A stretch of DNA of 42,673 nt from Paenirhodobacter populi (lineage in GTDB: Bacteria; Pseudomonadota; Alphaproteobacteria; Rhodobacterales; Rhodobacteraceae): NCBI RefSeq assembly GCF_004022215.1, contig NZ_SAUZ01000031.1, positions 1 through 42,673 on the forward strand, read 5' to 3'. A model generated the notes under the pieces. It did no database searches, was not told the origin of the DNA, and saw only the letters and a program-made list of their open reading frames with translations. Positions 7,613-35,851 of the stretch are shown piece by piece; within the stretch, counting starts at the first letter, position 1; every line of letters begins with the position of its first letter. A program made the position numbers and the translations under genes.

Positions 7613-10051
7613 TCAGTTCGTCACCGGTTCGGGCAGGGCGTAGGCGATGAAGTAATCGCCCTCGGCGGTGTGCATGTAGTGATGCCCGCCTGCCATGATG
7701 ACCAGATATTGCCGACCGCCGGTTTCATAGGTCATCGGGGTTGCCTGCCCGCCAGCGGGAAGGACATCGCTCCACACGACTTTACCTGTCCTGATGTCGA
7801 TGGCGCGGATCAGATTGTCCGTTGCTGCCGCGATGAAGATCAGGCCGCCCGCAGTGATGATCGGTCCGCCGTTGCTGGGCACGCCGAACTGGATGGGCAG
7901 GCCGGTCTCGATGCCGAACGGGCCGTTCGCCCGCGCGGTGCCAAGCGGCTGTTCCCAGAGCACCTTGCGCGTATGCATGTCGATGGCCGAGATCATGCCG
8001 TAGGGTGGCTCGTAGCATAGCACGCCGGTCAGCGGATTGTCGAACACCTCGACCGAGATCGCATAGGGCGCACCCACCTGTGCGCCGGGGCCTTCGGCAC
8101 CGCCGCCACCCGGACGCCAGTTCGGATCGTCATAGGCCTGAAGTCCGCGCCGCTCCGCGTCGTCGCGCGGCAGGAGCTGGTTGTACATGGCGACGATGTT
8201 CCAGTTGGAGACGAGCACGCCCGTCTGCGGATCGTAGGCCATGCTGCCCCAGTCCACGCCGCCGTTGTTGCCGGGATATTGCAGCCACGGCTGGCTGACG
8301 GTCGGGTTGGTGAACTCGCCGTCATAGCGGGCTTTGCGGAACTTGATCCGGCAGTAGAGCTGGTCGAGCGGCGTCAGCCCCCAGGCGAAGGATTCGGTGA
8401 AATCCCTGATGCCAAGACGCGGCATGCCGACGGACCAGGGCTGCGTCGCGGGATGGGGATCTTCCGTCACCTCGTTGTAGGTGGGGGCGGGACGTTCCTC
8501 GACCTCCGTCAGCGGCTTGCCGGTGCGGCGATCCAGAACGAAGGTCTGTCCCCGTTTGGTCGGCATGATGAGCGCCGGGACCGATCCGCCATCGGCGGCC
8601 GGGAAGTCGAACAGCGTCGCCTGCGAACCGATATCATAATCCCAGACATCCTTGTGCACCGTCTGGAATACCCACCGCTGTGTGCCGGTATGCACGTCCA
8701 GCGCGACCACCGCCGAGGAAACGGCATTCTCTTCCGGCGACCGCAGCGCGCTGTAATAGTCGATCGCGGCATTCCCGGTGGGCACGTAGACGAGGCCGAG
8801 CTTGTCATCCCCCACCAGCGCGCCCCAGGAATTCGGCGTTCCGGGGCTGTAGGTCTCGCCCTCGGGCGGCAGGCCCTTGCGGTCCGGGCGCTTGACGTCC
8901 CAGGCCCAGAGCAGGTCCCCGGTTTCGGCGCTGTAACCGCGGATCACGCCCGAGGGCGCATCGCGGAGCTGGCCATCCAATACCTCGTGGTTGGTGACGA
9001 CGACGCCATCGACGATCGCGGGAGGCGCGCCTTCGGACACCATGCCCGGAACGGCACGGCCCATGCCGGCCAGAAGGTCGACCTGACCGTCATTGCCGAA
9101 GCCCGTGCAGGCCTTGCCCGTCGCCATGTCCACAGCGATCAGCCGCCAGCCCTTGACCGCGTCGTTCACCGTCGCCTCGATCAGGCGGTCGTGACAGGGC
9201 TCGCCCTCGGGGATCGTAGGGGAAACGTAATAGGCGAGACTGCGGCAGGTCGCGGCAAAGCGGGTGTTCTGCCATTCGACGCCCGATTCATAGCGCCATA
9301 CTTCCTTGCCCGTTCTGGGGTCGAGCTTGACGATATCGTTCAGCGCCGAGCAGAGGTAAACCCCGTCGCCGATCTTCAGCGGCGTGGTTTCGGCACCGCG
9401 CACATTCACCTGTCCGGGCGGAGTCATGTCGCCGGTGCGGTATTCCCAGACCTTCTTCAGCCCGCCGACATTCTCTGCCGTCAACTGCGTCAGAGGCGAG
9501 AAACGCGTGGCGTTCTTGTCGCGCCCGAACGCGACCCAGTCGCTGTCCGGCGCATCCGTCGTGGTTTGTGCCTGCGTGACGAGGGGCTTGTCCGGGAAGG
9601 TACCGGCGGCGACATCGGACCGGCCGGGCAAAAAGGCCGCCGCTGCGCCGAGGACGATGACGGCCGCCGGGAACGTAGCCAGCACCAATGACAGCCTGCG
9701 CGAGACCCCGCCGCTCAACCGCGGCAGCAGCAGCGCCAGCACCAGTGCGAGGGGCACCAGAAAATCAAGCCGCGCGACCCAGGCCCAGTAGGCAAGGCCG
9801 CGTTCCCAGATCGTCCAGATGATGCTCAGTGCCAGCACGGAGGCGAACCACCACGCCCCCGACATCCGCTGCCGCCAGAGCAGGATGCCCGAAATCAGCA
9901 ATGCTATCCCGGAGATCAGATAATACCACGATCCGCCGAGCGTGATGAGCCGGACACCACCCGCCCCCGTAGCGATGCCGTAAAGGGCCAAAAATATGGC
10001 CAGAACACTTAACCAGAATCCTCTCGAGATTCCGGTCGTTTCGGATGGCAT
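7613..10051 (-). CDS. membrane-bound PQQ-dependent dehydrogenase (glucose/quinate/shikimate family)
   Basis: This protein of about 812 residues has the two-part family build. Five hydrophobic helices fill roughly residues 10-135 as the quinone-binding membrane anchor. A periplasmic eight-bladed PQQ propeller follows, starting DWVAFGRDKNATRFSPL. Blade motifs such as LDPRTGKEVWRYESG and LDVHTGTQRWVFQTVHKD recur, and the C-terminus reads GHHYMHTAEGDYFIAYALP. It oxidises a sugar or polyol in the periplasm and passes electrons to ubiquinone. Of two nearby ATGs, the one at 10051 is preferred because AGGAGG lies 7 bases upstream; from 10057 the spacing is only 1 base. Neighbours are the ABC genes downstream and a divergent IclR regulator. 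The exact substrate cannot be read off. Confidence 0.9.
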   Translation of the reverse strand: MPSETTGISRGFWLSVLAIFLALYGIATGAGGVRLITLGGSWYYLISGIALLISGILLWRQRMSGAWWFASVLALSIIWTIWERGLAYWAWVARLDFLVPLALVLALLLPRLSGGVSRRLSLVLATFPAAVIVLGAAAAFLPGRSDVAAGTFPDKPLVTQAQTTTDAPDSDWVAFGRDKNATRFSPLTQLTAENVGGLKKVWEYRTGDMTPPGQVNVRGAETTPLKIGDGVYLCSALNDIVKLDPRTGKEVWRYESGVEWQNTRFAATCRSLAYYVSPTIPEGEPCHDRLIEATVNDAVKGWRLIAVDMATGKACTGFGNDGQVDLLAGMGRAVPGMVSEGAPPAIVDGVVVTNHEVLDGQLRDAPSGVIRGYSAETGDLLWAWDVKRPDRKGLPPEGETYSPGTPNSWGALVGDDKLGLVYVPTGNAAIDYYSALRSPEENAVSSAVVALDVHTGTQRWVFQTVHKDVWDYDIGSQATLFDFPAADGGSVPALIMPTKRGQTFVLDRRTGKPLTEVEERPAPTYNEVTEDPHPATQPWSVGMPRLGIRDFTESFAWGLTPLDQLYCRIKFRKARYDGEFTNPTVSQPWLQYPGNNGGVDWGSMAYDPQTGVLVSNWNIVAMYNQLLPRDDAERRGLQAYDDPNWRPGGGGAEGPGAQVGAPYAISVEVFDNPLTGVLCYEPPYGMISAIDMHTRKVLWEQPLGTARANGPFGIETGLPIQFGVPSNGGPIITAGGLIFIAAATDNLIRAIDIRTGKVVWSDVLPAGGQATPMTYETGGRQYLVIMAGGHHYMHTAEGDYFIAYALPEPVTN

Positions 10052-10468
10052 GTTCATTCCTCCTGCGATGTCGGTTTCGCGTTCGTGTCAGCGGCAGCCC
10101 TCCGGCGCTACGTGCGGAAACGCTCTGGTTTCCGCGCAAGCGACCGATTGAGTCTGGCTGGCTGATAAACCCGAGTGCCACGCCCGGCAGACGTGGAATC
10201 CATGGCCCGGACCGGCGCATGACGCGGCGATATGTCGCTCATCTCTTCGGGCTGCACGATAGATTCCTGCAGTCTCGGGCATGGAAACCGCATTTGTTCA
10301 TCCATATTGAATTCTGCAGGGATTTTCAGCGCACCGCCTCACCGGAATATGCTCGCAGATCCTGCAATGCTGGGGAATTTGGGCATTTTCCCACTGTATA
10401 TCCTACAATGTTGAATTTTCTTGGATACTGCGTATTCTGCACCGCAACTGGCAGGCGGAAAGACGGAT
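10052..10468. promoter_or_regulatory. divergent intergenic region between the PQQ dehydrogenase and IclR genes
   Basis: About 410 bp without a credible gene. It carries the AGGAGG ribosome site of the dehydrogenase at its left end. An AT-rich stretch at about 10300-10435 should contain the promoters and probably the IclR operator. A loose dyad (GTATATCC at 10396-10403 against GGATAC at 10423-10428) is a weak candidate site. No other structure was recognised. Confidence 0.4.
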
Positions 10469-24063: not shown

Positions 24064-25920
24064 CTATTTCGACTTGCGCAGGCGCCTGTAGAATGTCGAT
24101 CTGTCGATTTTCGCCGCCCGGGCCGCAGCGGTAACATTCCCACCATACTCATTCAGAAATTGCAGCAATGCATCCTCCGACGTGCCATTTGTCGGTAAAC
24201 TGGCGGAGGAGGCACGATCCGTTATCACTGCCGGAAGGTGGATGGGCAAGACAGAAGCACCATCGCACATTGCCGCGGCGAGTTCGCAAAGATTGATGAT
24301 CTCCCGCACATTTCCGGGCCAGGCGTAGGACAGCAGCAGGTCCATCGCCTGAGGCGAGAAGCATGGTTTGCCTTCAGTGGCGGCGGAGATATTCTGGATC
24401 AGCCACTCCAAGTCAGTACGCGCGCGGACCGGTGGAATGTCAAGCACCAGCCCGTTCAGCCGGTAATACAGATCCTGCCGGAACTGTCCCTGCGCCACCA
24501 GTTCAGCCAAGTCGCGATGCGACGCAGAGATCACGCGGACGTTCACCGGTTCGGCCTTCGTGGCACCGACAGGCAGCACTTCTCGTTCGGACAGCACGCG
24601 CAGCAGCCGTGCCTGCAAGCCCATCGGCATGTCGCCGATCTCGTCCAGAAACAGCGTGCCACCATTCGCCTCGCGGATGAGACCTTTCTTGCCGCGGGCA
24701 TGCGCGCCGGTAAAGGCGTTGGGGGCGTAGCCGAAAAGCTCGCTTTCGATCAGCGCCTCGGGCAGGGCCGCGCAGTTGATTGCGACGAAAGGCCCGCGTC
24801 GGCGAGAGGAGTCATGCATGGCCCGCGCAATGAATTCCTTCCCGGTGCCGGTCTCGCCCCGCAGGATGACACTGATCTGCCGGTCCACGACCCTGGCGGC
24901 ACGTTCCGCCAGATGACGCATGGCGGGATCCCCGTCATGTATAGCCCGCAACGGCTTTGGCACTGCGTGCTCGACGGCCCGGCGAGGCGGCGCGGTCGGC
25001 GGGACCGAGCGTGCGAAGATGAAGCCGCCGGACTGCATCTCCAATGCGCCATCTACCGGAGCCATCGCGCGCGAGAGCTTGGGCAGATCGTCCAGATCAT
25101 AAGAAAAAATCTCGTCGAACCGCTGACCGATCAATGCCTTGCTTGATTTTTGACCAAGAAGTGCAAGCGCATTGTTGGTCATACCCGCGATGCATCCATC
25201 CGCGCCGATGGCCAGCGCCGCCATCGGATCCACATCAAGAAATTCAGACGACAGGTTCAGCCGCAGGATCCAGTCCGCGCGATGACATCGGACGAGGTTC
25301 GCCATCTCTATCCGCCGGGCGCAGGATTTCATCACCTCCAGCGTCAGGGCCTGGCTCATCTTGTCCTGAGGCGGCTCCAGATGCGACAGATCCAGCGCCC
25401 CCACCAGCTTTCCCTGCGCGGAGTGGATCGGTACCGCGGTGCAGGAAAGGGACGTCAGTGCCATGTCGAAATGGTCGCCGCGATGCACGGTAATGGGCCG
25501 CCCGGTGGCGAGGCAGGCACCCACTCCATTCGTGCCGACATTGCTCTCGTGCCATTCCGAGCCCGAAATCAGCCCTGCATGGCGCACCTCCCGGTCCAAT
25601 TCGGTATCGCCGATGGTATCGACGGTGACGCCGTGTGCATTCGCGAGCATCAGCACATAGCCCATCGCGTTTACCCGGCGATAGAGATCCTCCATACCGT
25701 GCCGAGCCATGCCCAGCAATTCCTCTGAATCCTGCCGGTGGTTGTTCAACTCCTGTGCGGTGACGATTCGTGGTCCCGTATGTCTGCCCGGATCCAACTG
25801 ATGTTCAATGACGCAGCGTCGCCAAGAGGCCAGCACATCCGCATCCCGACGCGAATTCTGCCCTTCGGCCACGCCGATGACTTCCAGGACATGCGCCCCG
25901 GCGTTCGACCTTCCTCCCAT
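24064..25920 (-). CDS. acoR: sigma-54-dependent activator of acetoin catabolism, AcoR-like
   Basis: A protein of about 618 residues built as AcoR. An N-terminal sensor opens DVLASWRRCVIEHQLDP, with a GAF domain at about 60-205 (WHESNVGTNGVGACLATGRP). A PAS-like linker follows, then an AAA+ domain with Walker A GETGTGKE at 355-362 and Walker B GGTLFLDEIG at 420-429. The C-terminal Fis-type HTH reads NVTAAARAAKIDRSTFYRRL. The sigma-54 contact loop reads NAFTGA (401-406) instead of GAFTGA. The ATG at 25920 has GGGAGGAGCC ahead, so it was preferred over a frame start at 25956. The gene follows the butanediol dehydrogenase gene by 81 bases on the same strand. It is expected to activate the sigma-54 promoter at 33750. 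Confidence 0.9.
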   Translation of the reverse strand: MGGRSNAGAHVLEVIGVAEGQNSRRDADVLASWRRCVIEHQLDPGRHTGPRIVTAQELNNHRQDSEELLGMARHGMEDLYRRVNAMGYVLMLANAHGVTVDTIGDTELDREVRHAGLISGSEWHESNVGTNGVGACLATGRPITVHRGDHFDMALTSLSCTAVPIHSAQGKLVGALDLSHLEPPQDKMSQALTLEVMKSCARRIEMANLVRCHRADWILRLNLSSEFLDVDPMAALAIGADGCIAGMTNNALALLGQKSSKALIGQRFDEIFSYDLDDLPKLSRAMAPVDGALEMQSGGFIFARSVPPTAPPRRAVEHAVPKPLRAIHDGDPAMRHLAERAARVVDRQISVILRGETGTGKEFIARAMHDSSRRRGPFVAINCAALPEALIESELFGYAPNAFTGAHARGKKGLIREANGGTLFLDEIGDMPMGLQARLLRVLSEREVLPVGATKAEPVNVRVISASHRDLAELVAQGQFRQDLYYRLNGLVLDIPPVRARTDLEWLIQNISAATEGKPCFSPQAMDLLLSYAWPGNVREIINLCELAAAMCDGASVLPIHLPAVITDRASSASLPTNGTSEDALLQFLNEYGGNVTAAARAAKIDRSTFYRRLRKSK

Positions 25921-26001
25921 TGGCTCCTCCCAAAGCCTCCGGGGCGAAAATAGCACGTTCTTCGCCCCGGTGTGGAACTGTATTACATGATCAGCCCTCT
26001 T

Positions 26002-27126
26002 TCAGCGTGAAAGATCGATTAGGATCTTGAGCTGCGTTCCGGCCGGGTCCAGCAACGCCTCGAACCCCTCGGCCACGGCCTGATCCAGGGCGATCCGCTT
26101 CGTCACCACCCGGCTGGCAGGGATCGCCCCCGAGGCGATCAGCTCGATGGTGCGGGGCCAGCTATGCGTCGGATAGCACCACGAACCCCGGATCTCGACA
26201 TTCTTGAAGGTCAACTGGAAGAAATCCACACTGCCCTTACCCGCCATCAAGCCGGTCTGCACGATCACGCCCTGCTTTCTGACGGCGTCGAGACAGGATT
26301 GCAGCGCGCGCTCGTTGCCCACGCATTCCAGCGCCACATCGCAGCCGATGCCGTCCAGTGTGGCCGCGCCCACCACGTCGCCCACGTTTTCCCTGGCGGG
26401 GTTGATGGTGATGACGCCGGGCACCACCTCGCGCGCCAGGGCCAGCCGCGTCTCGTTCACGTCAGAGGCGAAAAGCCGTGTCGCGCCGAAGGCCCGTGCC
26501 GTGAGCAATGCAAGGATGCCGATGGGACCGGCGCCGGTAACCAGCACCGAATCGCCCGCTGTCACCCGACCCCTGTCGCAGGCATAGACCACCACGGCGG
26601 TCGGCTCGACCAGCGCGGCTTCTTCATCCGACATCTCGGCCGGGATCTTTTCGACATTGTAATCGTTCAGCAGCGCCATTTCCGACATGCCGCCCGAATG
26701 CCAGCTAAGCCCGACCAGCGCGAGACTGCCCGACAGGTTATGCCAACCGCGATCGGCGAAATACTCGCCGCCGCGCGGCATGATCAGCGGCTGGACAGCG
26801 ACGCGGTCTCCCACCACGACTTTGGTGACGCCTTCGCCCACGGCCACGACCTCGCCCCCGAACTCGTGGCCCAGCACCTGCGGATAAACCGCGCCGGAAT
26901 AGGGATGCGGCTCGGTCGGGACAAAGATCGGGCCGCTGGCATATTCGTGCAGGTCGGTGCCACAGATGCCGACGAAACGATTGCGGATCAAGACCTGCCC
27001 CGGTCCGGGCTGCCCGGGCCTGGCGATGTTCTCGATCCTCAGATCCTTCGCGGCGTGGAAGCGCAGCGCCCGCATGGTTCTGGTCTCCGCTGAGGCGCGC
27101 GTCATGGTTGCGTTCTCAATCGACAT
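26002..27126 (-). CDS. 2,3-butanediol dehydrogenase-like, medium-chain (zinc) dehydrogenase
   Basis: A 374-residue MDR-family enzyme. The catalytic zinc Cys is in VGICGTDLHEYASGP, followed by the GHEFGGEVVAVGEG motif, VEPTAVVVYACDRG, and a Rossmann motif VTGAGPIGILALLTARAFGA. The DLHEY motif is typical of butanediol dehydrogenases, which interconvert 2,3-butanediol and acetoin with NAD(H). The segment where many relatives hold four structural-zinc cysteines reads PRGGEYFADRGWHNLSG and has none. The ATG at 27126 overlaps the end of the membrane-protein gene by 11 bases. Its place in the acetoin locus supports feeding butanediol into the acetoin dehydrogenase. Confidence 0.88.
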   Translation of the reverse strand: MSIENATMTRASAETRTMRALRFHAAKDLRIENIARPGQPGPGQVLIRNRFVGICGTDLHEYASGPIFVPTEPHPYSGAVYPQVLGHEFGGEVVAVGEGVTKVVVGDRVAVQPLIMPRGGEYFADRGWHNLSGSLALVGLSWHSGGMSEMALLNDYNVEKIPAEMSDEEAALVEPTAVVVYACDRGRVTAGDSVLVTGAGPIGILALLTARAFGATRLFASDVNETRLALAREVVPGVITINPARENVGDVVGAATLDGIGCDVALECVGNERALQSCLDAVRKQGVIVQTGLMAGKGSVDFFQLTFKNVEIRGSWCYPTHSWPRTIELIASGAIPASRVVTKRIALDQAVAEGFEALLDPAGTQLKILIDLSR

Positions 27127-28177
27127 CTTCCCAACTCCCTGAAGTTTTCTGACCTGCCCAGAGGTAGGGCCGGTCGTTTCCGAATCCGAAAAGCAGCGCG
27201 ATCACAAAGGACCAGTGCGTGCCCATGTATGCGTATGTCAGCGCCTCGTTCATGTCGGTGAAGACTGACCCGACCAGGCTGGCGAGAAAGAGGGTGACAA
27301 TGGTTGTCACTATCACGCAGAACAGACAGGCGAGAATGCCGCCCCAGGGCATCGGGATGAGCGTGAAGGGCCAGTTCCTGAGCTGGATCAACAGCGCGTA
27401 AGAGACCGAGCAGGCCACCATGAACCACAGAAGCCAACGCGGGTCGGAAAAGTAGCCGATCGTCCAGAACGTCCCCACCCCGGGCGCTTCCGTGTCCCAG
27501 ACCCCGATGCCCGAACTGATCGCAAGGAAGCAGATGACGACGAGGAACAGGATCCCGATTTGCGCCAGCGCCTTGCCCGGCTGGGTCATGCGCCGGGTCA
27601 GATAGGCGAGCACTCCCGAAGCCGAGCCCATCTCGATGAAGGGAAACCACCAGGCCGGGATCCAGCGGATGCTGGAATTCGTGACCACATAGGTCAGGAA
27701 TGCGATCATCACCAGCAGGATGAAGAACTGCCGATGCGGCGGCATTCCCGCCACGATCCAGTTCTCGCCCGCGAACGAAAAAAAGGCGATGAAGAAAAAG
27801 ATGCATCCGATGATTGGAAACACCCAGTCCGCATCAAGACCCGCCCAGTAAATGCCCTTGGCCGACAGCCATCCGACCAACCACGCCACCGCCAGCGTGA
27901 CGAACCCGCGCGTCACCGGGTCTTCTATCCGATGGAAGGGAAAGCCGCCGCTCACCACGCTGAGGAGCACCCACCAGAGCGCCATGAGCTGCCAAGTGAC
28001 GTTGTCGAGCCAGTACATCTCCGCAATCTGATCGCCAGCCCAAGGGCCGATCGGTGCGGCCTTGACGATCAGGTTCACGACGAAGCATGAGACGATGCCC
28101 AGTCCGAAGATCAGGCCGAGCCCTCCGAGCGCGTTTGGCAACCGCGCAGGCGCCACCTCTATAGCTGTTGTTTGCAT
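27116..28177 (-). CDS. polytopic membrane protein of unknown function in the acetoin locus
   Basis: A 353-residue protein with about nine or ten hydrophobic segments (for example LGGLGLIFGLGIVSCFVVNL, FPIIGCIFFFIAFFSFAG, GILACLFCVIVTTIVTLFL), rich in Trp and Phe. No transporter-family signature was recognised. The unusual aromatic-rich loops (EMYWLDNVTWQLMALWWVL) suggest a specific ligand or lipid role. It is translationally coupled to the butanediol dehydrogenase (11-bp overlap) and has a GGTGAGGAC ribosome site. Location suggests uptake of acetoin or butanediol, or a membrane step of their oxidation, but that is guesswork from context. Confidence 0.75.
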   Translation of the reverse strand: MQTTAIEVAPARLPNALGGLGLIFGLGIVSCFVVNLIVKAAPIGPWAGDQIAEMYWLDNVTWQLMALWWVLLSVVSGGFPFHRIEDPVTRGFVTLAVAWLVGWLSAKGIYWAGLDADWVFPIIGCIFFFIAFFSFAGENWIVAGMPPHRQFFILLVMIAFLTYVVTNSSIRWIPAWWFPFIEMGSASGVLAYLTRRMTQPGKALAQIGILFLVVICFLAISSGIGVWDTEAPGVGTFWTIGYFSDPRWLLWFMVACSVSYALLIQLRNWPFTLIPMPWGGILACLFCVIVTTIVTLFLASLVGSVFTDMNEALTYAYMGTHWSFVIALLFGFGNDRPYLWAGQKTSGSWEDVD

Positions 28178-28336
28178 GTCCTCACCTGTTCTTGTTCGGT
28201 TTGGTCTCTGCCCCCCGAGGGGTGGGCCGGAACGCAGATGTCTCCCTCCTCTGCCGGCTCGCTGCCGGATTCATGATTCGGCACCTGAAGAAAAATCACT
28301 TCGGAAAAGCGATATCGGGGCGCCCGGCCGGGATCG

Positions 28337-28351
28337 CCCGCCAGCGGCGGG
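28337..28351. promoter_or_regulatory. small GC hairpin in the 220-bp gap within the acetoin locus
   Basis: CCCGCC and GGCGGG pair around a 3-base loop inside the only large gap of the locus (28178-28400). It could be a transcript-processing or attenuating hairpin. No T run follows. Other short G/C palindromes lie nearby (about 28320-28333 and 28367-28383). Confidence 0.3.
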
Positions 28352-28400
28352 GGATGCCCCTGGCCCGCGGGTCCCTTCGCGGGATGGAGGTGCTGCGCTT

Positions 28401-28745
28401 TCATGAGGGGCCTCCATCCAGTTCGTCAAAGGCCGCCAGCGCCTTGGCGGCATAGACCGTGCCCGGCCCGCCGGACATCTCGATGGCGATGGCAAGAACC
28501 TCGATGAATTCGTCGCGGCTGGCGCCATGGGTCTTGGCCTCGGCGGTGTGGAAGATGATGCAATCCTCGCAGCCACGCCCGATGGCGACGGCAAGGGCGA
28601 TCATCTCCTTGATCGCCGGACCGAGCCTGCCCTCGCGGCTCGCGGCGGCCATCAGCCCGCGGAATGCGGACATGGTTTTGCCGTCGGCTTTGTAGAGCAC
28701 GGCCGCGCGGGCGTTCGCCTCGGCCAGTTTCTGTTTCGCGCTCAT
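28401..28745 (-). CDS. AhpD-like / carboxymuconolactone decarboxylase-family protein
   Basis: A 114-residue protein with the AhpD/CMD helical fold and its redox motif: KEMIALAVAIGRGCEDCIIF gives the C-x-x-C pair, followed by HT, as in peroxidase-partner proteins. The ending YAAKALAAFDELDG is usual for the family. The start at 28745 overlaps the SDR stop as ATGA. Members act as disulfide reductants or peroxidases, and family proteins of this kind are often found beside dehydrogenase operons. A role in protecting the lipoyl enzyme complex is conceivable but not shown. Confidence 0.85.
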   Translation of the reverse strand: MSAKQKLAEANARAAVLYKADGKTMSAFRGLMAAASREGRLGPAIKEMIALAVAIGRGCEDCIIFHTAEAKTHGASRDEFIEVLAIAIEMSGGPGTVYAAKALAAFDELDGGPS

Positions 28746-29530
28746 ACCAGCACCATGCCGCCGTCCACGACCAGACTTTGCCCGGTCATGTAGTCCGACC
28801 CGGCCGAGGCGAGGAAGATCGAGACCCCGGCCAGATCCTCGGGGTGCGAGGGGCGGCCCAGCAGGATGCCGGCGGAAAACCCCTCGAATGCCTCGTTGTC
28901 GCGGCTGGTCAGGCCTTCGTCCTTGAAACCCTTGTCGATCAGCTTCCACATGTCGGTGGCAACCACGCCGGGGCAGATGGCATTGACATTGATGCGGTGC
29001 TTGCCAAAGGCGCGGGCGGCGGCCTGGGTCAGCGCCACCACGGCGAATTTGCTGGCCGAGTAATGCGCCAGCGGCTCGTAGCCCTGCTTGCCGGCGATGC
29101 TGGCGGTGTTGATGATCTTGCCGCCACCGCCCTGCGCGATGAACTGTTTCGAGGCCTCCTGAATGCCGATCAGCACGCCCATGGCGTTCACGTCCATGAC
29201 ACGGTGCCAGTCGTCCTCGGTGATGTCGTTGAACTGCTTGACCTGTGCGATGCCGGCATTGTTGAACATCGCATCCAGCCGTCCGTAGCTGCTGACGGTC
29301 CGGGCGATCAGCGCCCGGGTGCTGGCGCGGTCGGTGACATCGACCGCGAGGCCGATGGCCTGCCCTCCGGCTTCGCGGATCTCGGCGGCGGTGGCCTCTG
29401 CGGTTTCGGCGTTGATGTCGGCGATGACCACGCGGGCGCCAGCCTGCGCCAGCCCCTCGGCGATCGAACGGCCGATGCCGCGGCCCGAGCCGGTGACGAT
29501 GATCGACCGGTCTTCAATGGAATTGCTCAT
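28742..29530 (-). CDS. SDR family acetoin reductase / butanediol dehydrogenase-like protein
   Basis: A 262-residue classical SDR with TGSGRGIG near residue 13, FNNAGIAQV near 89, YSASK near 159 and a SDYMTGQSLVVDGG ending. Overall it is like the meso-butanediol/acetoin (diacetyl) reductases of the BudC/ButA type. It sits directly after a terminator hairpin at 29548-29576, with GGGAGGAAAGAC as ribosome site, and its stop is coupled to the AhpD-like gene. With the zinc dehydrogenase at 26002 it gives the locus two unrelated enzymes for the acetoin/butanediol step, perhaps for different stereoisomers. Confidence 0.87.
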   Translation of the reverse strand: MSNSIEDRSIIVTGSGRGIGRSIAEGLAQAGARVVIADINAETAEATAAEIREAGGQAIGLAVDVTDRASTRALIARTVSSYGRLDAMFNNAGIAQVKQFNDITEDDWHRVMDVNAMGVLIGIQEASKQFIAQGGGGKIINTASIAGKQGYEPLAHYSASKFAVVALTQAAARAFGKHRINVNAICPGVVATDMWKLIDKGFKDEGLTSRDNEAFEGFSAGILLGRPSHPEDLAGVSIFLASAGSDYMTGQSLVVDGGMVLV

Positions 29531-29583: not shown

Positions 29584-30687
29584 TCAGGCGATGAAATCGC
29601 GGATCAGCCGGTTCACCTCGGCGGATTGCTCCATCTGGACCATGTGGCCGGCGTTGGGGATGATGCTGGTCCGGGCTCCCGGCAGGGCACCGGCATGGGC
29701 GGCGGGGATGATGGCATCCGCCTCGCCCCAGATCACCTGCGCCGGCACCCCGCCGGCGGCCAGCCCCGCGCCGATCTGCTGCGCCTGCCGACCGCCCTTG
29801 AAGAGGGCCGCCGACAGGTCGGACAGGAAATCCTGCACCCCGTCCAACCGCTTGAACTTCAACAGATCCTCTACCATCGCGCGGCTGACCAGCCCCTGAT
29901 CCTTGAACAGATGCGCCAGCACGGGTTTCAGATCCCTGCGCCCGGTCGCGGCGACGAAGCCGTCGATATAGCCGGCGTTGATTTCATCCCCCAGTCCGGC
30001 CGGGCAGATCAGCGTGACCGAGGCCACACGCTCGGACGCGCTGATCGCCACCGAACCCGCGATCAGCCCGCCCATCGAGTGGCCCGCCAGATGCACCCTG
30101 CCGGCACCGATATGGTCAAGAAAGGCCAGAACCGTATCCACCATCAGCCCCAGCCCGGCCGGCCGCGCCGACTTGACCGACTGGCCATGGCCAGGCAGGT
30201 CCAGCGCATAGACCGGCGCGCTTTCGGCCAGGACATCAATGTTGAACAGCCAGTTGTCCAGATCGCCGCCAAAGCCGTGGATCAGCACCAGCGGCACCCC
30301 TTCGCCCGGGCGTTCCGCATAGCGGATGCGGCCGGCAGGCAGCTCGACGAATTGATAGGCGGGGCCTTCATCGTCTTCCTCGCCTCCGGCAGAAGGTGTC
30401 TCATAGGCGGCGACATAGGCGTCGATTTCCGCGTCCGGCACGCTCGCCGGCGCCATCACTCCCAAGAGGGCGCGGACGGGATAGGTCTCGCCCTCGACGC
30501 CGACGCGACGGCGCAGCAACCCGCCATCCGCCGCCTCGACGACATTGGCGATCTTGTCGGTCTCGACATCCATGATCTCGTCACCCGGCGCGATGACCGC
30601 GCCTTCGGCCACATGCCATGCGGCAAGTTTGCCCTCTCGCATCGACAGACCCCATTTCGGCATCAGGATGGGGGTGATTTTCTCCAT
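29584..30687 (-). CDS. acoC: acetoin dehydrogenase E2 component (lipoyl domain plus alpha/beta-hydrolase fold)
   Basis: A protein of about 367 residues in the AcoC layout. A lipoyl domain comes first (LMPKWGLSMREG, lipoylation Lys45 in DVETDKIAN). An acidic linker (GGEEDDEG) follows, then an alpha/beta-hydrolase fold with VLIHGFGGDLDNW, nucleophile motif GHSMGG, an acid in VIWGEADAIIP and His in NAGHMVQME. AcoC transfers the acetyl group from the E1-bound intermediate of acetoin to CoA, giving acetyl-CoA, while E1 releases acetaldehyde. The ATG at 30687 is one base from the acoB stop. No E3 (dihydrolipoyl dehydrogenase) gene is in the locus, so a shared one must serve. Confidence 0.93.
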   Translation of the reverse strand: MEKITPILMPKWGLSMREGKLAAWHVAEGAVIAPGDEIMDVETDKIANVVEAADGGLLRRRVGVEGETYPVRALLGVMAPASVPDAEIDAYVAAYETPSAGGEEDDEGPAYQFVELPAGRIRYAERPGEGVPLVLIHGFGGDLDNWLFNIDVLAESAPVYALDLPGHGQSVKSARPAGLGLMVDTVLAFLDHIGAGRVHLAGHSMGGLIAGSVAISASERVASVTLICPAGLGDEINAGYIDGFVAATGRRDLKPVLAHLFKDQGLVSRAMVEDLLKFKRLDGVQDFLSDLSAALFKGGRQAQQIGAGLAAGGVPAQVIWGEADAIIPAAHAGALPGARTSIIPNAGHMVQMEQSAEVNRLIRDFIA

Positions 30688-30688
30688 G

Positions 30689-31696
30689 TCAGTTCTCCAG
30701 CGTCTTGCGAACCGCCGCGGCGATGCGTTCGGCAGAGGGCACATAGATATCTTCGAGCGCGGGCGAGAAGGGCACAGGCGCATGCGGCGGCGTCACCATC
30801 TGGATGGGCGCCTTCAGCGATTCAAAGGCGTCCTGCGCCACGTTGGCCGAGATATCGGCGGCGATGGAACAGCGCGGGTTCGCCTCGTCGACGCAGATCA
30901 GCCGGCCGGTCGTCTCGACGCTTTCAAGGACCGTATCCATGTCGATGGGCGACAGCGTGCGCAGGTCGATCACCTCCACCTCAATGCCGTCCTTTTTCAG
31001 CATCCCGGCCGCTTCCAGCGAACGCCCGACCATCTGGCCATAGGTGACGATGGTGGCGTCGCGGCCCTCGCGCACGATATTCGCCTCGCCAAAGGGAATG
31101 GTATAGGGTTCCTCGGGCACGTCGCAGGTGCTGGCATACAGATTCTTGTGCTCAAGAAAGATCACCGGATCGTTGTCGCGGATCGACTGGATCAGCAGGC
31201 CCTTGCAGTCATAGGCGTTCGAGGGGCAAACGACCTTGAGCCCCGGCAGATGCGTGAACAGCGGCGTGAGCATCTGGCTGTGCTGGCCCGCCGCGCGAAA
31301 GCCCGCGCCGCACATCGCCCGGATCACCACCGGGGTTTCCGCCTTTCCGCCGAACATGTAGCGGAACTTGGCCGCCTGGTTGAATACCTGGTCCAGACAG
31401 ACGCCGATGAAATCAACGAACATCAGCTCGGCCACCGGCCGCAAGCCCGCCGTCGCCGCCCCCACTGCCGCGCCGACATAGGCGCTTTCCGACAGTGGAG
31501 TGTCGATCATCTGTCCGGGGTGCTTGGCGTAAAGCCCCTTGCTGACGCCAAGGACGCCGCCCCATGCGTCATCCTCGCCCTTCGCGCCGGCGCCGCCGAC
31601 GATATCCTCGCCCATCATGATCACGGTGGGGTCGCGGGTCATTTCCTGATCCAGCGCCTCGTTCACCGCGTCCTTCATGCTGATGATGCGTGCCAT
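30689..31696 (-). CDS. acoB: acetoin dehydrogenase E1 component, beta subunit
   Basis: A 335-residue transketolase-like beta subunit. It shows VIMMGEDIVGGAGAKG near the start, then DTPLSESAYVGAAVGAATAG and the FVDFIGVCLDQVFNQAAKFR segment. ATIVTYGQMVGRSLEAA opens the C-terminal half. It pairs with AcoA to form the thiamine-diphosphate E1 that splits acetoin (oxidatively, using an artificial acceptor in assays and lipoate in vivo). Gaps to acoA (13 bases) and acoC (1 base) are operon-like. Confidence 0.94.
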   Translation of the reverse strand: MARIISMKDAVNEALDQEMTRDPTVIMMGEDIVGGAGAKGEDDAWGGVLGVSKGLYAKHPGQMIDTPLSESAYVGAAVGAATAGLRPVAELMFVDFIGVCLDQVFNQAAKFRYMFGGKAETPVVIRAMCGAGFRAAGQHSQMLTPLFTHLPGLKVVCPSNAYDCKGLLIQSIRDNDPVIFLEHKNLYASTCDVPEEPYTIPFGEANIVREGRDATIVTYGQMVGRSLEAAGMLKKDGIEVEVIDLRTLSPIDMDTVLESVETTGRLICVDEANPRCSIAADISANVAQDAFESLKAPIQMVTPPHAPVPFSPALEDIYVPSAERIAAAVRKTLEN

Positions 31697-31709: not shown

Positions 31710-32690
31710 TCAATAGGACACGTAAACGTCGGTGGTCAGTTGCTCGGGTCGGGGGTGCGGCGCGGCGATGGCCTCGTCCACGGCCGCGTTGATCAGCGCG
31801 GCGACCTCGGCATCGATGGCGTCAAGCTCGGCCGCGTCGATCACCCCGACCTCGGTCACTTTCTGGCGGAAAAGCGTCAGGCAATCATTGTGCGCGCGGT
31901 TGTATTCGTTCTCACCCGGCGCCTTGTAGGTCTGGGCATCGCCCTCGAAATGACCGAAGAAACGGACGTTCTTGCATTCCAGAAGCGTCGGTCCCGCGCC
32001 TTCGCGGGCGCGCTTGATCACCTCGCCCGCGGCCTCGTAGACTGCGAAGAAATCAAGGCCATCGACGGTGATCCCCGGCATGCCGAAGCCGGTCGCCCGG
32101 TCCACATAGCTGTCCGAGGCGGTGGCATAATCCACCGAGGTCGATTCCGCGTAACCGTTGTTTTCCACGACAAAGATCACCGGCAGGTTCCAGATCGCCG
32201 CCAGGTTCATGCTTTCCAGCACGGTGCCCTGGTTCGAGGCGCCATCGCCGAAAAAGGTGATGCCCACGCCGTCATGCTTCAGCTTCTGCGCCGCCAGCGC
32301 CGCGCCGCAGACCAGCGGCGCACCAGCGCCCAGAATGCCGTTCGCCCCCATCATGCCAAGCGACAGGTCGGCGATATGCATCGAGCCGCCCTTGCCGGCG
32401 CAGCAGCCGGTGGCCTTGCCATAGATCTCGGCCATCATCGCCTTGACGTCGACGCCCTTGGCGATGCAATGCCCGTGTCCGCGATGGGTCGAGGCGATGC
32501 GGTCGCGGTCGTGCAGATGCGCCATGATGCCCACCGCCGTCGCCTCTTCTCCGGCGTAGAGGTGGACAAATCCCGGAATCTCGCCGCGCGAGAAATCGAC
32601 ATGCAGCCGCTCTTCGAAATCGCGGATGGTGCGCATCTTTCGATAGGCGTCCAGAAGCTGCTCTTTCGGCAGCGGAAACGGATTGGACAT
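31710..32690 (-). CDS. acoA: acetoin dehydrogenase E1 component, alpha subunit
   Basis: A 326-residue protein with the E1-alpha pattern. Early it reads MRTIRDFEERLHVDFSRGEI and GFVHLYAGEEATAVG, then RGHGHCIAKG with GGKGGSMH-like GKGGSMHIAD, and the thiamine-diphosphate motif beginning GDGASNQGTVLESMN and ending VENN about 28 residues on. It binds ThDP with AcoB. The gene follows acoX by 20 bases. Nothing looks truncated. Confidence 0.94.
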   Translation of the reverse strand: MSNPFPLPKEQLLDAYRKMRTIRDFEERLHVDFSRGEIPGFVHLYAGEEATAVGIMAHLHDRDRIASTHRGHGHCIAKGVDVKAMMAEIYGKATGCCAGKGGSMHIADLSLGMMGANGILGAGAPLVCGAALAAQKLKHDGVGITFFGDGASNQGTVLESMNLAAIWNLPVIFVVENNGYAESTSVDYATASDSYVDRATGFGMPGITVDGLDFFAVYEAAGEVIKRAREGAGPTLLECKNVRFFGHFEGDAQTYKAPGENEYNRAHNDCLTLFRQKVTEVGVIDAAELDAIDAEVAALINAAVDEAIAAPHPRPEQLTTDVYVSY

Positions 32691-32710: not shown

Positions 32711-33724
32711 TCAGTCTGGGTTGCGGATGAACAGCCCGGCCAAGGCCGCATGGGCCATGCAGGCCGGCACGTCGATGGTGCGAAAGGCGTCGGGCACCAG
32801 ACGCACGGAAACCTCGTCGCTTTCGGTGAAGATCAGCTCGCGCTCGCCATCAAAGGCCAGCGCGCCGGCCGGGATCGAGGGGCGGTGCGCCGCGCCGGGC
32901 CGCATCGTCTCGATGCCCGCGATTCCGACCCGGTCGATCAGGCCCGGCGCGATCGGGGCCAGCAATCGGCGCGGCGCGTCGGGGGACAGGCGGATATGCC
33001 GCCCCTCGGGGGCGGCGCGGTCCACCGGGTCCAGCAAGCCGGCAATCGCGGACATGCCGATGGCCTGCGGCAGGCCGAAGGTCACGAACAGGTCACGAAA
33101 TCCGTTGGTTTTCCAGATGGCGCGGGTGCCGACGAAACGGTCTTCGACCACTGCGACGTCGACCAGCGCAATTTCGCGCCGGTCGTTCAGCGCGACCTCC
33201 AGCCATTTGTTCGGGCGAAAAGCGGTGGTGGGCGGCACCTGTCCGGTCGCCGCCAGCCCGACGGCCAGCCCGGTGATCGTCGGTTCCCGCAATTCGGGAA
33301 AGGCGTTGTTGGTTCCCGTCGACACACCGGCCACAGGGACCCCGCCACAGGCACCGACGACGACACGATTGGTTCCGTCACCGCCCAGAACCACGATGGC
33401 CGCGACCCCCCCTTCGGCCATCATCCGCGCGGCGCGGGCGCTGTCCCCGGCTGTCGCCGTCACCGGCATGTCCAGATAGCGAAGTTGCGGAAAGCTCATG
33501 TGCCCCAGCCGCAGCTCGCGCTGGATGATGCGCTCCAGATGAAAGCGGATACCACCATTCTCGGGCATGACCACGACCTCGTCCACGCCGGTAGCGGCCA
33601 GTCCGGCCATCATGCGCAGAACGATGTTGGCACGGTCGTTGATGGGCAGATTGCCCGCATGCGAGATCACCCGGCGAATATCGCGGGCAGAAATCGGATT
33701 GGCGATAATACCGACCTTGACCAT
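32711..33724 (-). CDS. acoX: AcoX, ATP-NAD kinase-family protein of acetoin operons
   Basis: A 337-residue protein beginning KVGIIANPISARDIRRVISH, with VVLGGDGTNRVVV at the NAD-kinase GGDGT motif and GVSTGTNNAFPE at the second conserved site. AcoX accompanies acetoin dehydrogenase genes in many bacteria; its true substrate is not established. The ATG at 33724 has GGAGGAACAGA ahead; an upstream frame start at 33766 would overlap the promoter. It is the first gene after the sigma-54 promoter at 33750-33765. Confidence 0.9.
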   Translation of the reverse strand: MVKVGIIANPISARDIRRVISHAGNLPINDRANIVLRMMAGLAATGVDEVVVMPENGGIRFHLERIIQRELRLGHMSFPQLRYLDMPVTATAGDSARAARMMAEGGVAAIVVLGGDGTNRVVVGACGGVPVAGVSTGTNNAFPELREPTITGLAVGLAATGQVPPTTAFRPNKWLEVALNDRREIALVDVAVVEDRFVGTRAIWKTNGFRDLFVTFGLPQAIGMSAIAGLLDPVDRAAPEGRHIRLSPDAPRRLLAPIAPGLIDRVGIAGIETMRPGAAHRPSIPAGALAFDGERELIFTESDEVSVRLVPDAFRTIDVPACMAHAALAGLFIRNPD

Positions 33725-33749
33725 TCTGTTCCTCCCTGCAAATCTAACA

Positions 33750-33765
33750 AGCAACAGGGATGCCA
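33750..33765 (-). promoter_or_regulatory. sigma-54 (-24/-12) promoter of the acoXABC operon
   Basis: On the minus strand TGGCATCCCTGTTGCT matches the consensus TGGCAC-N5-TTGCW at all positions but one (T for the last C of the -24 box), with the correct 10-base GG-to-GC distance. A start point about 12 bases beyond the GC would give a 5' leader of about 15 bases before the acoX ATG, including its ribosome site. The presence of AcoR and an rpoN gene in the same locus supports it. Confidence 0.85.
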
Positions 33766-33803
33766 AACTAAACGGATAGTTTTTTCAGGGTTTTTGAAGG
33801 CAG

Positions 33804-33830
33804 GTGTAGCATTCGATGCAACACTGTTGC
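33804..33830. promoter_or_regulatory. overlapping palindromes, candidate AcoR enhancer site
   Basis: Two palindromes overlap. GTGTAGCAT-TCG-ATGCAACAC (33804-33824) has 8 of 9 matched pairs, and GCAACA-C-TGTTGC (33818-33830) is perfect with 6-bp arms. They lie about 65-90 bases upstream of the expected acoX start point and 22-48 bases before the rpoN ATG. This is a suitable enhancer distance for AcoR and could also let the same protein control rpoN. Binding is inferred. Confidence 0.55.
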
Positions 33831-33851
33831 GCAGCGGACAGAGGGCAGCCG

Positions 33852-35012
33852 ATGCAAAGGCAGGAACAGCGCCAGATCAGGAGTTTATCCCTCAGTCTGC
33901 AAATGCGGCTAGCGCTGGATGTGCTGCATATGGATACGGGGCGGCTCAGGCGCCGGATCAGGCTGGAACTGGCAAGAAACCCGGCGCTGACCTGCTCGGA
34001 CCCCGAGCTCTTGCCGCAGGCGGAGGATGCGCGCGCCGCTCTGATTGCCCAGATCGGGCTGCTGCGCCTGACGGTCGAGCAAAGACGGTTCGCGCGGGAG
34101 TTGGTGCATTGCCTCGACGACCGCGGGCTGCTGGTCGATCCGCTGGCCGAGATCGCCGCATGGCTGGGCACGACCCATGACATGCTGAACGATCTGCTGC
34201 CGCATCTGCACCAACTGGAGCCGCCGGGGGTGTTCGCCCGCGATATCGCCGAGTGCTTCCGCCTGCAACTGCGGGCGAAGAACCGTCTGGACCCGTGGAT
34301 GGACCGGCTGCTGGACCGACTGGATCTGGTCGCGGCAAATGATCTTTCGGCCATCGCCGCATTTTTGGGAACGGATCACGAAGACTCGCGGGAGATGGTC
34401 GCGGATATCCGCAACCTTTCTCTGGCACCCTTCTTGGGCAGCGCCGAACCTGAAGGGCCTCCGCCCGAACTGGAACTGACGGCCGAGGGTGTGCTGCGCC
34501 TCGGAACGACGCTGAAACTTGTGCAGCACGACGGAGGAGAGAATGCCGAAGCCCGGATCTCGGCGCAAAATCTGGCCGCGGCGGTGGAGGGCCGGGCGGC
34601 AAGCCTGTTGCGGATCGGCACAGCGATGGTTGAGCTCCAGTTGCCCTGGCTGCTCGGTGGCGGCGCATGCCGTCCTTTGACGATGACCGCGCTCGGCGCG
34701 CAACTTGGAATGAGTAAAAGCACCATCAGCCGCGCTGTCGCCGGCGTTGCAATGCGGACGCCCAACGGGATCGTGCATTTGAGAGATCTTCTGAAAACCC
34801 CCGTCAGTCCTCAAAATCCTGACCTCGATCGTGAAGCTGTGGCAAAGACGCTTCGCAATATCATGGACAACTGGCCTGCGGCACCCAGAATGACGGATGC
34901 GCTTCTTGTCAAGGAGCTTGCGGCGAGAGGTATCCGCCTTTCACGCCGTACAGTCGCAAAATATCGTCTTGAGCTAGGCTCCAGACCCATTGATTTCAGG
35001 CTTCTTGCGTGA
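33852..35012 (+). CDS. rpoN: small RNA polymerase sigma-54 factor paralogue; C-terminus overwritten by an IS end
   Basis: A 386-codon sigma-54. Region I is SLSLSLQMRLALDVLHMDTG and RLELARNPAL. The acidic region II is nearly absent, as in some alphaproteobacteria. The core-binding part starts LIAQIGLLRLTVEQRRFAR. The -12 helix region has LGAQLGMSKSTISRAVAG and the RpoN box reads SRRTVAKYRL (consensus ARRTVAKYRE). The start at 33852 (MQRQEQ) fits region I; an ATG at 33816 would lie inside the palindromes. After YRLELG the last ten residues (SRPIDFRLLA) are encoded by the left end of an IS5 element, so the native tail is lost. It faces acoX divergently and may be dedicated to this locus. Confidence 0.88.
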   Translation: MQRQEQRQIRSLSLSLQMRLALDVLHMDTGRLRRRIRLELARNPALTCSDPELLPQAEDARAALIAQIGLLRLTVEQRRFARELVHCLDDRGLLVDPLAEIAAWLGTTHDMLNDLLPHLHQLEPPGVFARDIAECFRLQLRAKNRLDPWMDRLLDRLDLVAANDLSAIAAFLGTDHEDSREMVADIRNLSLAPFLGSAEPEGPPPELELTAEGVLRLGTTLKLVQHDGGENAEARISAQNLAAAVEGRAASLLRIGTAMVELQLPWLLGGGACRPLTMTALGAQLGMSKSTISRAVAGVAMRTPNGIVHLRDLLKTPVSPQNPDLDREAVAKTLRNIMDNWPAAPRMTDALLVKELAARGIRLSRRTVAKYRLELGSRPIDFRLLA

Positions 35013-35385
35013 TTCAGGCTCCGCAACGAGACCTGATTGATGAGCAATCTTTACTGGCTGACCGACGCCCAGATGGAGCGGCTGAAGCCGTTCTTCCCCC
35101 AAAGCCATGGCAAGCCCCGCGTCGATGATCGCCGTGTTCTCAGCGGCATAATCTTCATCAATCGTAATGGCTTGAGGTGGCGTGATGCGCCGAAGGAATA
35201 CGGACCCGCCAAGACCTTCTACAACCGTTGGAAGCGCTGGAGCGACTACGGTGTCTTCGCCCGGATCATGGTCGGCCTGGCCGCCGAGCACGCCGCGCAC
35301 AAGACCATCATGATCGATGCGACCCACCTCAAGGCGCACCGCACGGCGTCGAGCCCGTGCGTGAAAAAGGGGGGCTCGAACGTCA
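34978..35385 (+). mobile_element. IS5-family (IS427-like) 5' fragment inserted in the 3' end of rpoN
   Basis: The element starts just after CTAG (34974-34977), a typical YTAR-type IS5 target. It begins GCTCCAGACCCATTGATTTC and carries the transposase N-terminal frame from ATG 35040 (MSNLYWLTDAQMERLKPFFP), with VDDRRVLSGIIFINRNGLRW and DATHLKAHRTASSP. This frame is intact through the A5G6 slippage run, where it would pass to orfB. There the element is cut off and IS66 sequence begins, so it cannot move by itself. Confidence 0.82.
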
Positions 35386-35851
35386 GCCCGTCATGACCTT
35401 TCCGGAAGTCGATCGCTTTCGTCGCGACCATGATCCGAACCCGGTTCGACGGGAAGATCATGTGCCAGCCGTCAGCGCGCGGGCCACCGATGCTTATCCG
35501 ATCTGCCGAGGCCCCGGCTTCCAGGCGGATGGTCACGGCACCGACGACGAGCTCGGCCCTCTCCGCCACAGGCCGCACGACGACAGGGCGCGGCTCCTCG
35601 CCTGGGCCCAGCATCAACGTCGCAAACTCTACGGGATCTTCCGGCGCGGGCAGAACCAGCCGCCCTTTCCGCGCCAGCGTTCGCCACGATGATACATGGT
35701 TTGCAGGCAAGCCGTGCCGTCGCGCCACCTCATTCACCGTTGCGCCAGGCTCCAGCGTTTCCGCCACGATCCGCGCCTTCACCTCATCTGGCCACTTCCG
35801 GTTCCGACGGCCGCGGCCGCCAGCCGGGAGAACCTCCAATGCAGTCTCCAT
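35386..35851 (-). mobile_element. IS66-family remnant (tnpA fused to the start of tnpB)
   Basis: From ATG 35849-35851 the minus strand reads RKWPDEVKARIVAETLEPGA and VNEVARRHGLPANHVSSWR, the helix-turn-helix of IS66 TnpA. LVVGAVTIRLEAGASADRIS at the end is the usual TnpA tail. Without a stop the frame continues into MIFPSNRVRIMVATKAIDFR and KGHDGL, the first 26 residues of IS66 TnpB (ATG at 35459-35461). There it is cut by the IS5 fragment. The two genes normally overlap in different frames, so a small deletion has fused them. The left end of the element probably extends to about 35930. Confidence 0.8.

What the first reader, a model, noticed from the sequence alone, without database searches (positions are those of the whole stretch)
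33725..33851. Self-contained sigma-54 circuit for acetoin use: promoter, enhancer palindromes, sigma factor and activator in one locus
The 127 bases between acoX and the divergent rpoN paralogue hold a correctly spaced -24/-12 promoter (TGGCATCCCTGTTGCT on the minus strand) and two overlapping palindromes about 65-90 bases upstream. The locus also encodes AcoR, the activator expected to use them. Known: sigma-54 plus AcoR control of aco operons, and multiple specialised RpoN copies in Rhodobacter sphaeroides. New here is a sigma-54 gene that seems dedicated to acetoin catabolism and shares its control region with its own target operon, which would allow feedback.
Basis: partly seen in the sequence, partly recalled or inferred. 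Interest (0 to 1): 0.8.

Follow-up and report, generated by a model that had tools for sequence, protein, structure and literature searches.

The report
Acetoin operon carrying private sigma-54
A bacterial gene cluster for eating acetoin carries its own sigma-54 switch protein, its own activator and the matching promoter, and in this genome that sigma-54 appears to serve nothing else, so the whole controlled pathway could work in bacteria that have lost general sigma-54.

Summary
The 127-base gap between acoX and rpoN has a -24/-12 site (33750-33765, minus strand) and an inverted repeat about 75 bases upstream of the expected start. The promoter lies at -39 to -44 from acoX in 15 of 17 loci compared; in a 16th a transposase insert separates it from acoX; the 17th, without it, has no rpoN found in its genome. 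Correction: this rpoN is no paralogue. It is the only rpoN found in the 4.78-Mb draft assembly, and of 18 activator-domain hits there only AcoR keeps FTGA in its loop. The same holds in 11 of 14 other genomes with an aco-linked rpoN (strong hits read); two of the remaining three have two rpoN and two FTGA activators. Sixteen aco-linked RpoNs form one clade. Of 394 family genomes, four have acoX, three have this RpoN type, and all three RpoNs lie within 5 kb of acoX. The locus has IS elements on both sides and was probably acquired. One sigma-54 per activator is known in Cereibacter; a sigma-54 tied to a catabolic operon was not found in nine paper searches. Feedback is untested.

The parts
33750..33765 (-). 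-24/-12 (sigma-54) promoter of the acoX operon, TGGCATCCCTGTTGCT; start expected near 33740
   Evidence: exact consensus match; at -39 to -44 from acoX in 15 of 17 loci
33805..33823 (.). inverted repeat TGTTGCA-N5-TGCTACA (minus-strand reading), probable AcoR site
   Evidence: 0 of 300 shuffles as good; a like dyad 58-60 bases before the -24 element in 8 of 10 Paracoccus-type loci, weak in L077 and L079
33852..35012 (+). rpoN (sigma-54): regions for activator, core and DNA binding; RpoN box intact; last residues from an IS
   Evidence: PF00309, PF04963, PF04552 above cut-off; alignment A1
32711..33724 (-). acoX, first gene of the operon
31710..32690 (-). acoA, acetoin dehydrogenase E1 alpha
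   Evidence: PF00676; 94% identical to P. denitrificans
30689..31696 (-). acoB, E1 beta
   Evidence: PF02779 and PF02780
29584..30783 (-). acoC, E2 acetyltransferase (longest ORF; true start probably near 30687)
   Evidence: lipoyl and alpha/beta-hydrolase domains
28742..29530 (-). SDR dehydrogenase, acetoin/diacetyl-reductase-like
   Evidence: best NCBIfam hit TIGR02415, 282.1 bits, below its cut-off of 304.35
28401..28949 (-). carboxymuconolactone-decarboxylase-like gene (longest ORF; true start probably near 28745)
   Evidence: PF02627; same order in P. denitrificans
26002..27126 (-). 2,3-butanediol-dehydrogenase-like zinc enzyme (true start probably near 27075)
   Evidence: PF00107, PF08240; 89% identical to P. 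denitrificans
24064..25956 (-). acoR: GAF, AAA+ and HTH_8, NAFTGA loop; last gene in the operon's direction (start probably ATG near 25920)
   Evidence: PF01590, PF00158, PF02954; loop
27066..28364 (.). 1.3-kb insertion within the gene row, nature unknown
   Evidence: absent from P. denitrificans; four ORFs tried without Pfam match
34979..35396 (+). IS5-family insertion that ends the rpoN reading frame (limits approximate); IS66-type sequence follows
   Evidence: homology to P. denitrificans ends at 34978; PF13340; IS66 matches from about 35384

Best explanation
The locus is a self-contained sigma-54 module for acetoin and probably 2,3-butanediol use. AcoR, presumably on sensing acetoin with its GAF domain, binds the dyad about 75 bases upstream of the start and makes RNA polymerase with the locally encoded RpoN open the -24/-12 promoter of acoX, acoA, acoB, acoC and the genes behind them. 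Shown from sequence: the parts and their order, the conserved promoter and dyad, one rpoN and one FTGA-loop activator in this draft assembly and in 11 others, and one clade of aco-linked RpoNs. Inferred: this is the whole sigma-54 regulon of these cells, and the module can travel, bringing sigma-54 to hosts that lack it. Only possible: AcoR or sigma-54 polymerase bound in the shared region also limits rpoN, which is read the other way.
For: One PF04552 match in G000. Of 18 PF00158 stretches in G000 only AcoR keeps FTGA; others read GAFAGA or GAFPGA, lack the loop, or are other AAA proteins. In 11 other genomes the sole PF04552 match is the aco-linked one, and of their 63 PF00158 hits at E up to 1e-20, 11 keep FTGA, one per genome, each the AcoR-like protein (73-92% identical to the window's in this domain; in G223 on another contig). 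G227 and G229 have two rpoN and two FTGA activators each. RpoN is held in 14 of the 80 best acoX loci. The 16 aco-linked RpoNs are one clade, SH-aLRT 100. Of 394 family genomes 4 have acoX and 3 the RpoN type (486 bits or more; next 294), at 0.1, 2.5 and 4.7 kb from acoX; the fourth acoX genome has neither RpoN nor promoter. That fourth genome is the one of L090, and one of the three is the one of L085, so they are not new cases. RpoN dN/dS 0.17-0.28 in three Paracoccus-type pairs. AcoA 94% and AcoX 89% identical to P. denitrificans although rpoB is 85%.
Against: No expression, binding or growth data. Assemblies are drafts; a missed rpoN is possible. L080 (a MAG) has the promoter and an NAFTGA AcoR, but no rpoN in the 0.7 kb held upstream of acoX, and the only PF04552 match of its genome falls outside the aco clade. 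RpoN misses the NCBIfam TIGR02395 cut-off (185.8 against 277.35 bits), and its dN is about two to eight times that of AcoX, AcoA and AcoB. A 1.3-kb insertion may cut bdh and acoR off from the promoter here. The promoter match alone is near chance. The dyad is weak in L077 and L079.
Confidence: 0.82

Rival explanations
1. The rpoN is simply the general sigma-54 of this organism, sits beside acoX by history, and also serves promoters elsewhere.
For: It is the only rpoN found in the assembly, and three further exact promoter matches exist in the genome.
Against: No other PF00158 hit in G000 keeps the FTGA that contacts sigma-54. Genome matches are 4 against 2 for the control pattern. 14 of 17 other genomes of the genus have rpoN matches; those put in the tree fall outside the aco clade.
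Confidence: 0.1
2. The rpoN is decaying here: an IS replaced its end and its sequence drifts fast. The operon is then silent or read from another promoter.
For: IS junction at 34978; RpoN 71% identical to P. denitrificans against 89-94% for AcoX and AcoA; insertion in the gene row.
Against: RpoN box and recognition helix are intact and relatives have short, variable tails too. dN/dS against P. denitrificans is 0.28. The promoter keeps the consensus.
Confidence: 0.08

Closest known systems
Cereibacter (Rhodobacter) sphaeroides pairs RpoN1-NifA, RpoN2-FleQ, RpoN3-AprX
   Same: One sigma-54 with one cognate activator for one set of genes, in a related bacterium (PMC11999139, passages).
   Different: There four rpoN coexist, serving nitrogen fixation, flagella and a regulator; RpoN4 had no role reported in those passages. 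Here one copy serves a carbon-source pathway beside its promoter. The four RpoNs of G051, perhaps a Cereibacter (inferred from its four copies), fall outside the aco clade.
AcoR and sigma-54 control of aco operons in Bacillus and Cupriavidus (Cupriavidus recalled; Bacillus AcoR named in PMC3162934, passage)
   Same: AcoR-type activator, -24/-12 promoter, aco genes.
   Different: Those use a general sigma-54 gene elsewhere (recalled). In the DNA held for 66 of the 80 acoX loci, some with short flanks, no RpoN match was seen.
Genomes with a single sigma-54 activator (Francke et al. 2011, PMC3162934, passages)
   Different: In the passages seen it is not linked with acetoin genes or with the position of rpoN.

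Membership tests
sigma-54 (RpoN) | activator-interacting, core-binding and DNA-binding domains | tested here: met
   PF00309, PF04963, PF04552 above their Pfam cut-offs
sigma-54 (RpoN) | RpoN box and recognition helix (motif names recalled) | tested here: met
   SRRTVAKYR and KSTISRA, aligned with 12 relatives
sigma-54 (RpoN) | NCBIfam TIGR02395 equivalog cut-off, 277.35 bits | tested here: not met
   185.8 bits; a divergent member by Pfam, not an equivalog by this curated score
sigma-54 activator (AcoR type) | GAF, AAA+ and HTH_8 domains | tested here: met
sigma-54 activator (AcoR type) | GAFTGA loop | tested here: inconclusive
   NAFTGA: FTGA kept, first G changed; listed as a substitution of a validated activator in PMC3162934 (passage)
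sigma-54-dependent operon | -24/-12 promoter with an upstream activator site | tested here: met
   by sequence only
sigma-54-dependent operon | transcription needs rpoN and the activator | not testable with these tools
   needs deletions and start mapping
mobile cassette | same block in unlike flanks and host genera | tested here: inconclusive
   IS sequence on both sides; a 10,079-bp block 99.4% identical in P. kondratievae and on a Brucella pseudintermedia contig, where contamination is not excluded

The most novel reading that the evidence does not exclude
The aco RpoN and AcoR are an insulated pair that has co-evolved away from general sigma-54: the activator loop begins with N or H in all 15 AcoRs read at rpoN-linked loci and in L080, against 4 of 32 at loci without rpoN (shared ancestry and near-copies inflate this), and the RpoN clade has a long stem. 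It would be a portable, orthogonal sigma-54 regulon that installs enhancer-dependent control where sigma-54 is absent and does not cross-talk where a resident rpoN exists.
Probability: 0.35. Interest if true: 0.8.

Novelty: new variant of a known kind. Interest (0 to 1): 0.64.

Why it matters
Sigma-54 is usually a shared sigma factor with many activators. Here it looks reduced to one activator and one pathway and packed together with both in a locus that was probably acquired. That gives a simple natural system to ask how sigma-54 specificity evolves, how a lineage can lose general sigma-54 and regain it piecemeal, and whether insulated sigma-54 pairs could serve as parts for gene circuits in laboratory strains.

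Tried and rejected
Rejected: that this rpoN is an extra copy. Rejected as proof: the single promoter match and the 13-base palindrome; conservation was used instead. The dyad test used an arm picked after seeing the alignment; in L077 and L079 it is weak (40 and 45 of 300 shuffles as good), and TGTGGC...GCCACA stands there instead. dN/dS: of six pairs run, I quote three; the other three are near-identical pairs with few changes (RpoN 0.68, 0.26 and 0.07), and the AcoR value of one pair failed. The first rpoB comparison took wrong frames and was redone. G186 and G241 turned out to be the genomes of L085 and L090, so they are not counted as new cases.

A strict rule of one activator per rpoN does not hold in the own genus (17 other genomes, PF00158 hits at E up to 1e-50). 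G046, G204, G205 and G211 have two rpoN and two FTGA activators; G208, G209, G198, G210 and G212 one and one; but G201 and G206 have one rpoN and two, G199 and G200 one and three (probably NifA-type copies, inferred). G207 has three rpoN matches, one a fragment at a contig edge, and two FTGA activators. G202, G203 and G213 have no rpoN; none has FTGA, but G202 has GAFSGA.

Literature: nine searches showed, in the rows listed, no paper tying an rpoN gene to acetoin genes; some searches listed only part of their hits, and the library holds open-licence papers only. Passages were read in PMC3162934, PMC11999139, PMC12316311 and PMC5107571; no paper was read whole.

Full report
What is there. acoX (32711-33724, minus) and rpoN (33852-35012, plus) point away from each other across 127 bases. 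The minus strand of the gap has TGGCATCCCTGTTGCT at 33750-33765, spaced as a -24/-12 promoter. Upstream lies TGTTGCA-N5-TGCTACA (33805-33823), overlapping the palindrome GCAACACTGTTGC at 33818-33830. Behind the promoter run acoX, acoA, acoB, acoC, an SDR dehydrogenase, a carboxymuconolactone-decarboxylase-like gene, a butanediol-dehydrogenase-like gene and acoR, the order of P. denitrificans plasmid 1. No sigma-70-type site was found in 33650-33950 (0.2 expected), and no -24/-12 site pointing at rpoN, so what transcribes rpoN is unknown.

More than chance? The promoter match alone is not: 6 matches with up to one mismatch in the window against 2.77 expected, and 4 exact matches in G000 against 2 for the reversed pattern. 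Conservation is the evidence. Of 17 loci aligned (the window, L076-L090, L094), 15 have a 10-11 of 11 site at -39 to -44 from the acoX start. L079 has it beside rpoN, with a DDE transposase gene between it and acoX. L090, the last, has no PF04552 match in its genome. In 8 of 10 Paracoccus-type loci (two pairs of them close kin) a dyad lies 58-60 bases before the -24 element and at most 1 of 300 shuffles does as well; in L077 and L079 40 and 45 do. The arm was chosen after seeing the sequences.

One sigma factor, one activator. PF04552 finds one gene in G000. PF00158 finds 18 stretches. Aligned, only AcoR keeps FTGA, as NAFTGA; L003 reads GAFAGA, L004 GAFPGA, and the rest lack the loop or are other AAA proteins. 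Then the 16 genomes behind L076-L090 and L094 were searched. In 11 (G214-G217, G219-G221, G223-G226) there is one PF04552 match, the aco-linked one. Their PF00158 hits at E up to 1e-20 number 63; 11 keep FTGA, one per genome, each the AcoR-like protein, 73-92% identical to the window's over that domain (in G223 it lies on another contig than rpoN). G227 and G229 have two rpoN and two FTGA activators each. G222 (Brucella pseudintermedia) has two rpoN; two of its six hits were read, both GAFTGA. G228 has one hit, no FTGA and no rpoN. G218 was not read. In all 81 of 91 hits were read. Weaker hits were read in G000 only.

How general is the link? Of the 80 best acoX loci (of 407 found), 14 hold an RpoN match: L076-L079, L081-L089, L094. 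The other 66 show none in the DNA held, which for some is short. Against a strict link, L080 has the promoter and an NAFTGA AcoR but no rpoN in the 0.7 kb upstream, and its genome's one PF04552 match is of another clade. Among 394 family genomes (393 genera) acoX is in four and the aco-type RpoN in three of these, at 0.1, 2.5 and 4.7 kb. G186 and G241 of that set are the genomes of L085 and L090. In a tree of 71 RpoNs the 16 aco-linked ones form one clade, SH-aLRT 100, stem 1.07 (quick method, no bootstrap). Sigma-54 is patchy in the family: 62 of 198 genomes have a match over the cut-off.

Wider form. In L085-L088 (Nioella twice, Defluviimonas, Ruegeria) rpoN is divergent from another -24/-12 site, 24-42 bases from its start. 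In L087 and L088 that site heads CoxG-like and molybdenum-hydroxylase genes, in L086 an aldehyde dehydrogenase gene, before acoX. In L086-L089 a further site heads a solute-binding-protein gene beyond acoR. Three of six exact genome matches in G225 and three of seven in G226 lie in the aco locus. So a sigma-54 promoter close to the start of rpoN is kept in both layouts, though the gene it drives differs; this is what makes feedback plausible.

Origin and state. AcoA is 94% and AcoX 89% identical to P. denitrificans, while rpoB is 85% identical, against 89-93.5% to four genomes of the own genus. The locus was therefore probably acquired. Homology to the P. denitrificans plasmid covers 24064-27065 and 28365-34978, with IS5-family and IS66 sequence on the rpoN side, an IS110 transposase on the acoR side and a 1.3-kb insertion of unknown nature between. 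RpoN dN/dS is 0.17-0.28 in three Paracoccus-type pairs, against 0.04-0.18 for AcoX, AcoA and AcoB and 0.14-0.24 for AcoR; three near-identical pairs are uninformative. RpoN is constrained, but less than the enzymes. A 10,079-bp block is 99.4% identical in P. kondratievae and on a B. pseudintermedia contig; an IS5 on that contig is identical to one of Paracoccus sp. MA, so transfer and contamination both remain open.

What is known. In C. sphaeroides each studied RpoN works with a particular activator (PMC11999139, passages). Francke et al. 2011 state that the only activator of P. denitrificans and R. pomeroyi has N for the first G of the loop (PMC3162934, passages). PMC12316311 does not use the words acetoin or Paracoccus in its main text. 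The nine searches named under tried and rejected listed no paper tying an rpoN gene to acetoin genes.

Verdict. Shown from sequence: anatomy, conservation, a single pair. Inferred: exclusive use and mobility. Untested: start site, feedback, orthogonality.

Noticed in passing
window 34979-35012: The stop codon and last residues of rpoN come from an inserted IS5-family element; the RpoN box just before it is intact.
   Followed up: yes
window 27066-28364: A 1.3-kb insertion absent from P. denitrificans, four ORFs without Pfam match; part is 66% identical to a hypothetical gene of Paraburkholderia phenoliruptrix.
   Followed up: partly
L003, L004 and relatives: Activator-like proteins with GAFPGA, GAFAGA or no loop are common in these genomes, so annotations as sigma-54-dependent regulators may often be wrong.
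   Followed up: partly
L088 5313-5328, 9958-9973, 17097-17112: Roseobacter-type aco loci carry three -24/-12 sites, before CoxG/molybdenum-hydroxylase genes, acoX and a solute-binding-protein gene.
   Followed up: partly
L084: A Brucella pseudintermedia contig holds a 10,079-bp block 99.4% identical to Paracoccus kondratievae: transfer or contamination.
   Followed up: partly
L079 4201-5918: In Paracoccus alkenifer a transposase gene lies between the sigma-54 promoter and acoX.
   Followed up: yes
G202:C1:229632-230129: A genome of the same genus without any rpoN match keeps an activator-like protein with a GAFSGA loop.
   Followed up: no
window 7613-10057: A PQQ-dependent dehydrogenase-like gene lies on the same contig.
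   Followed up: no
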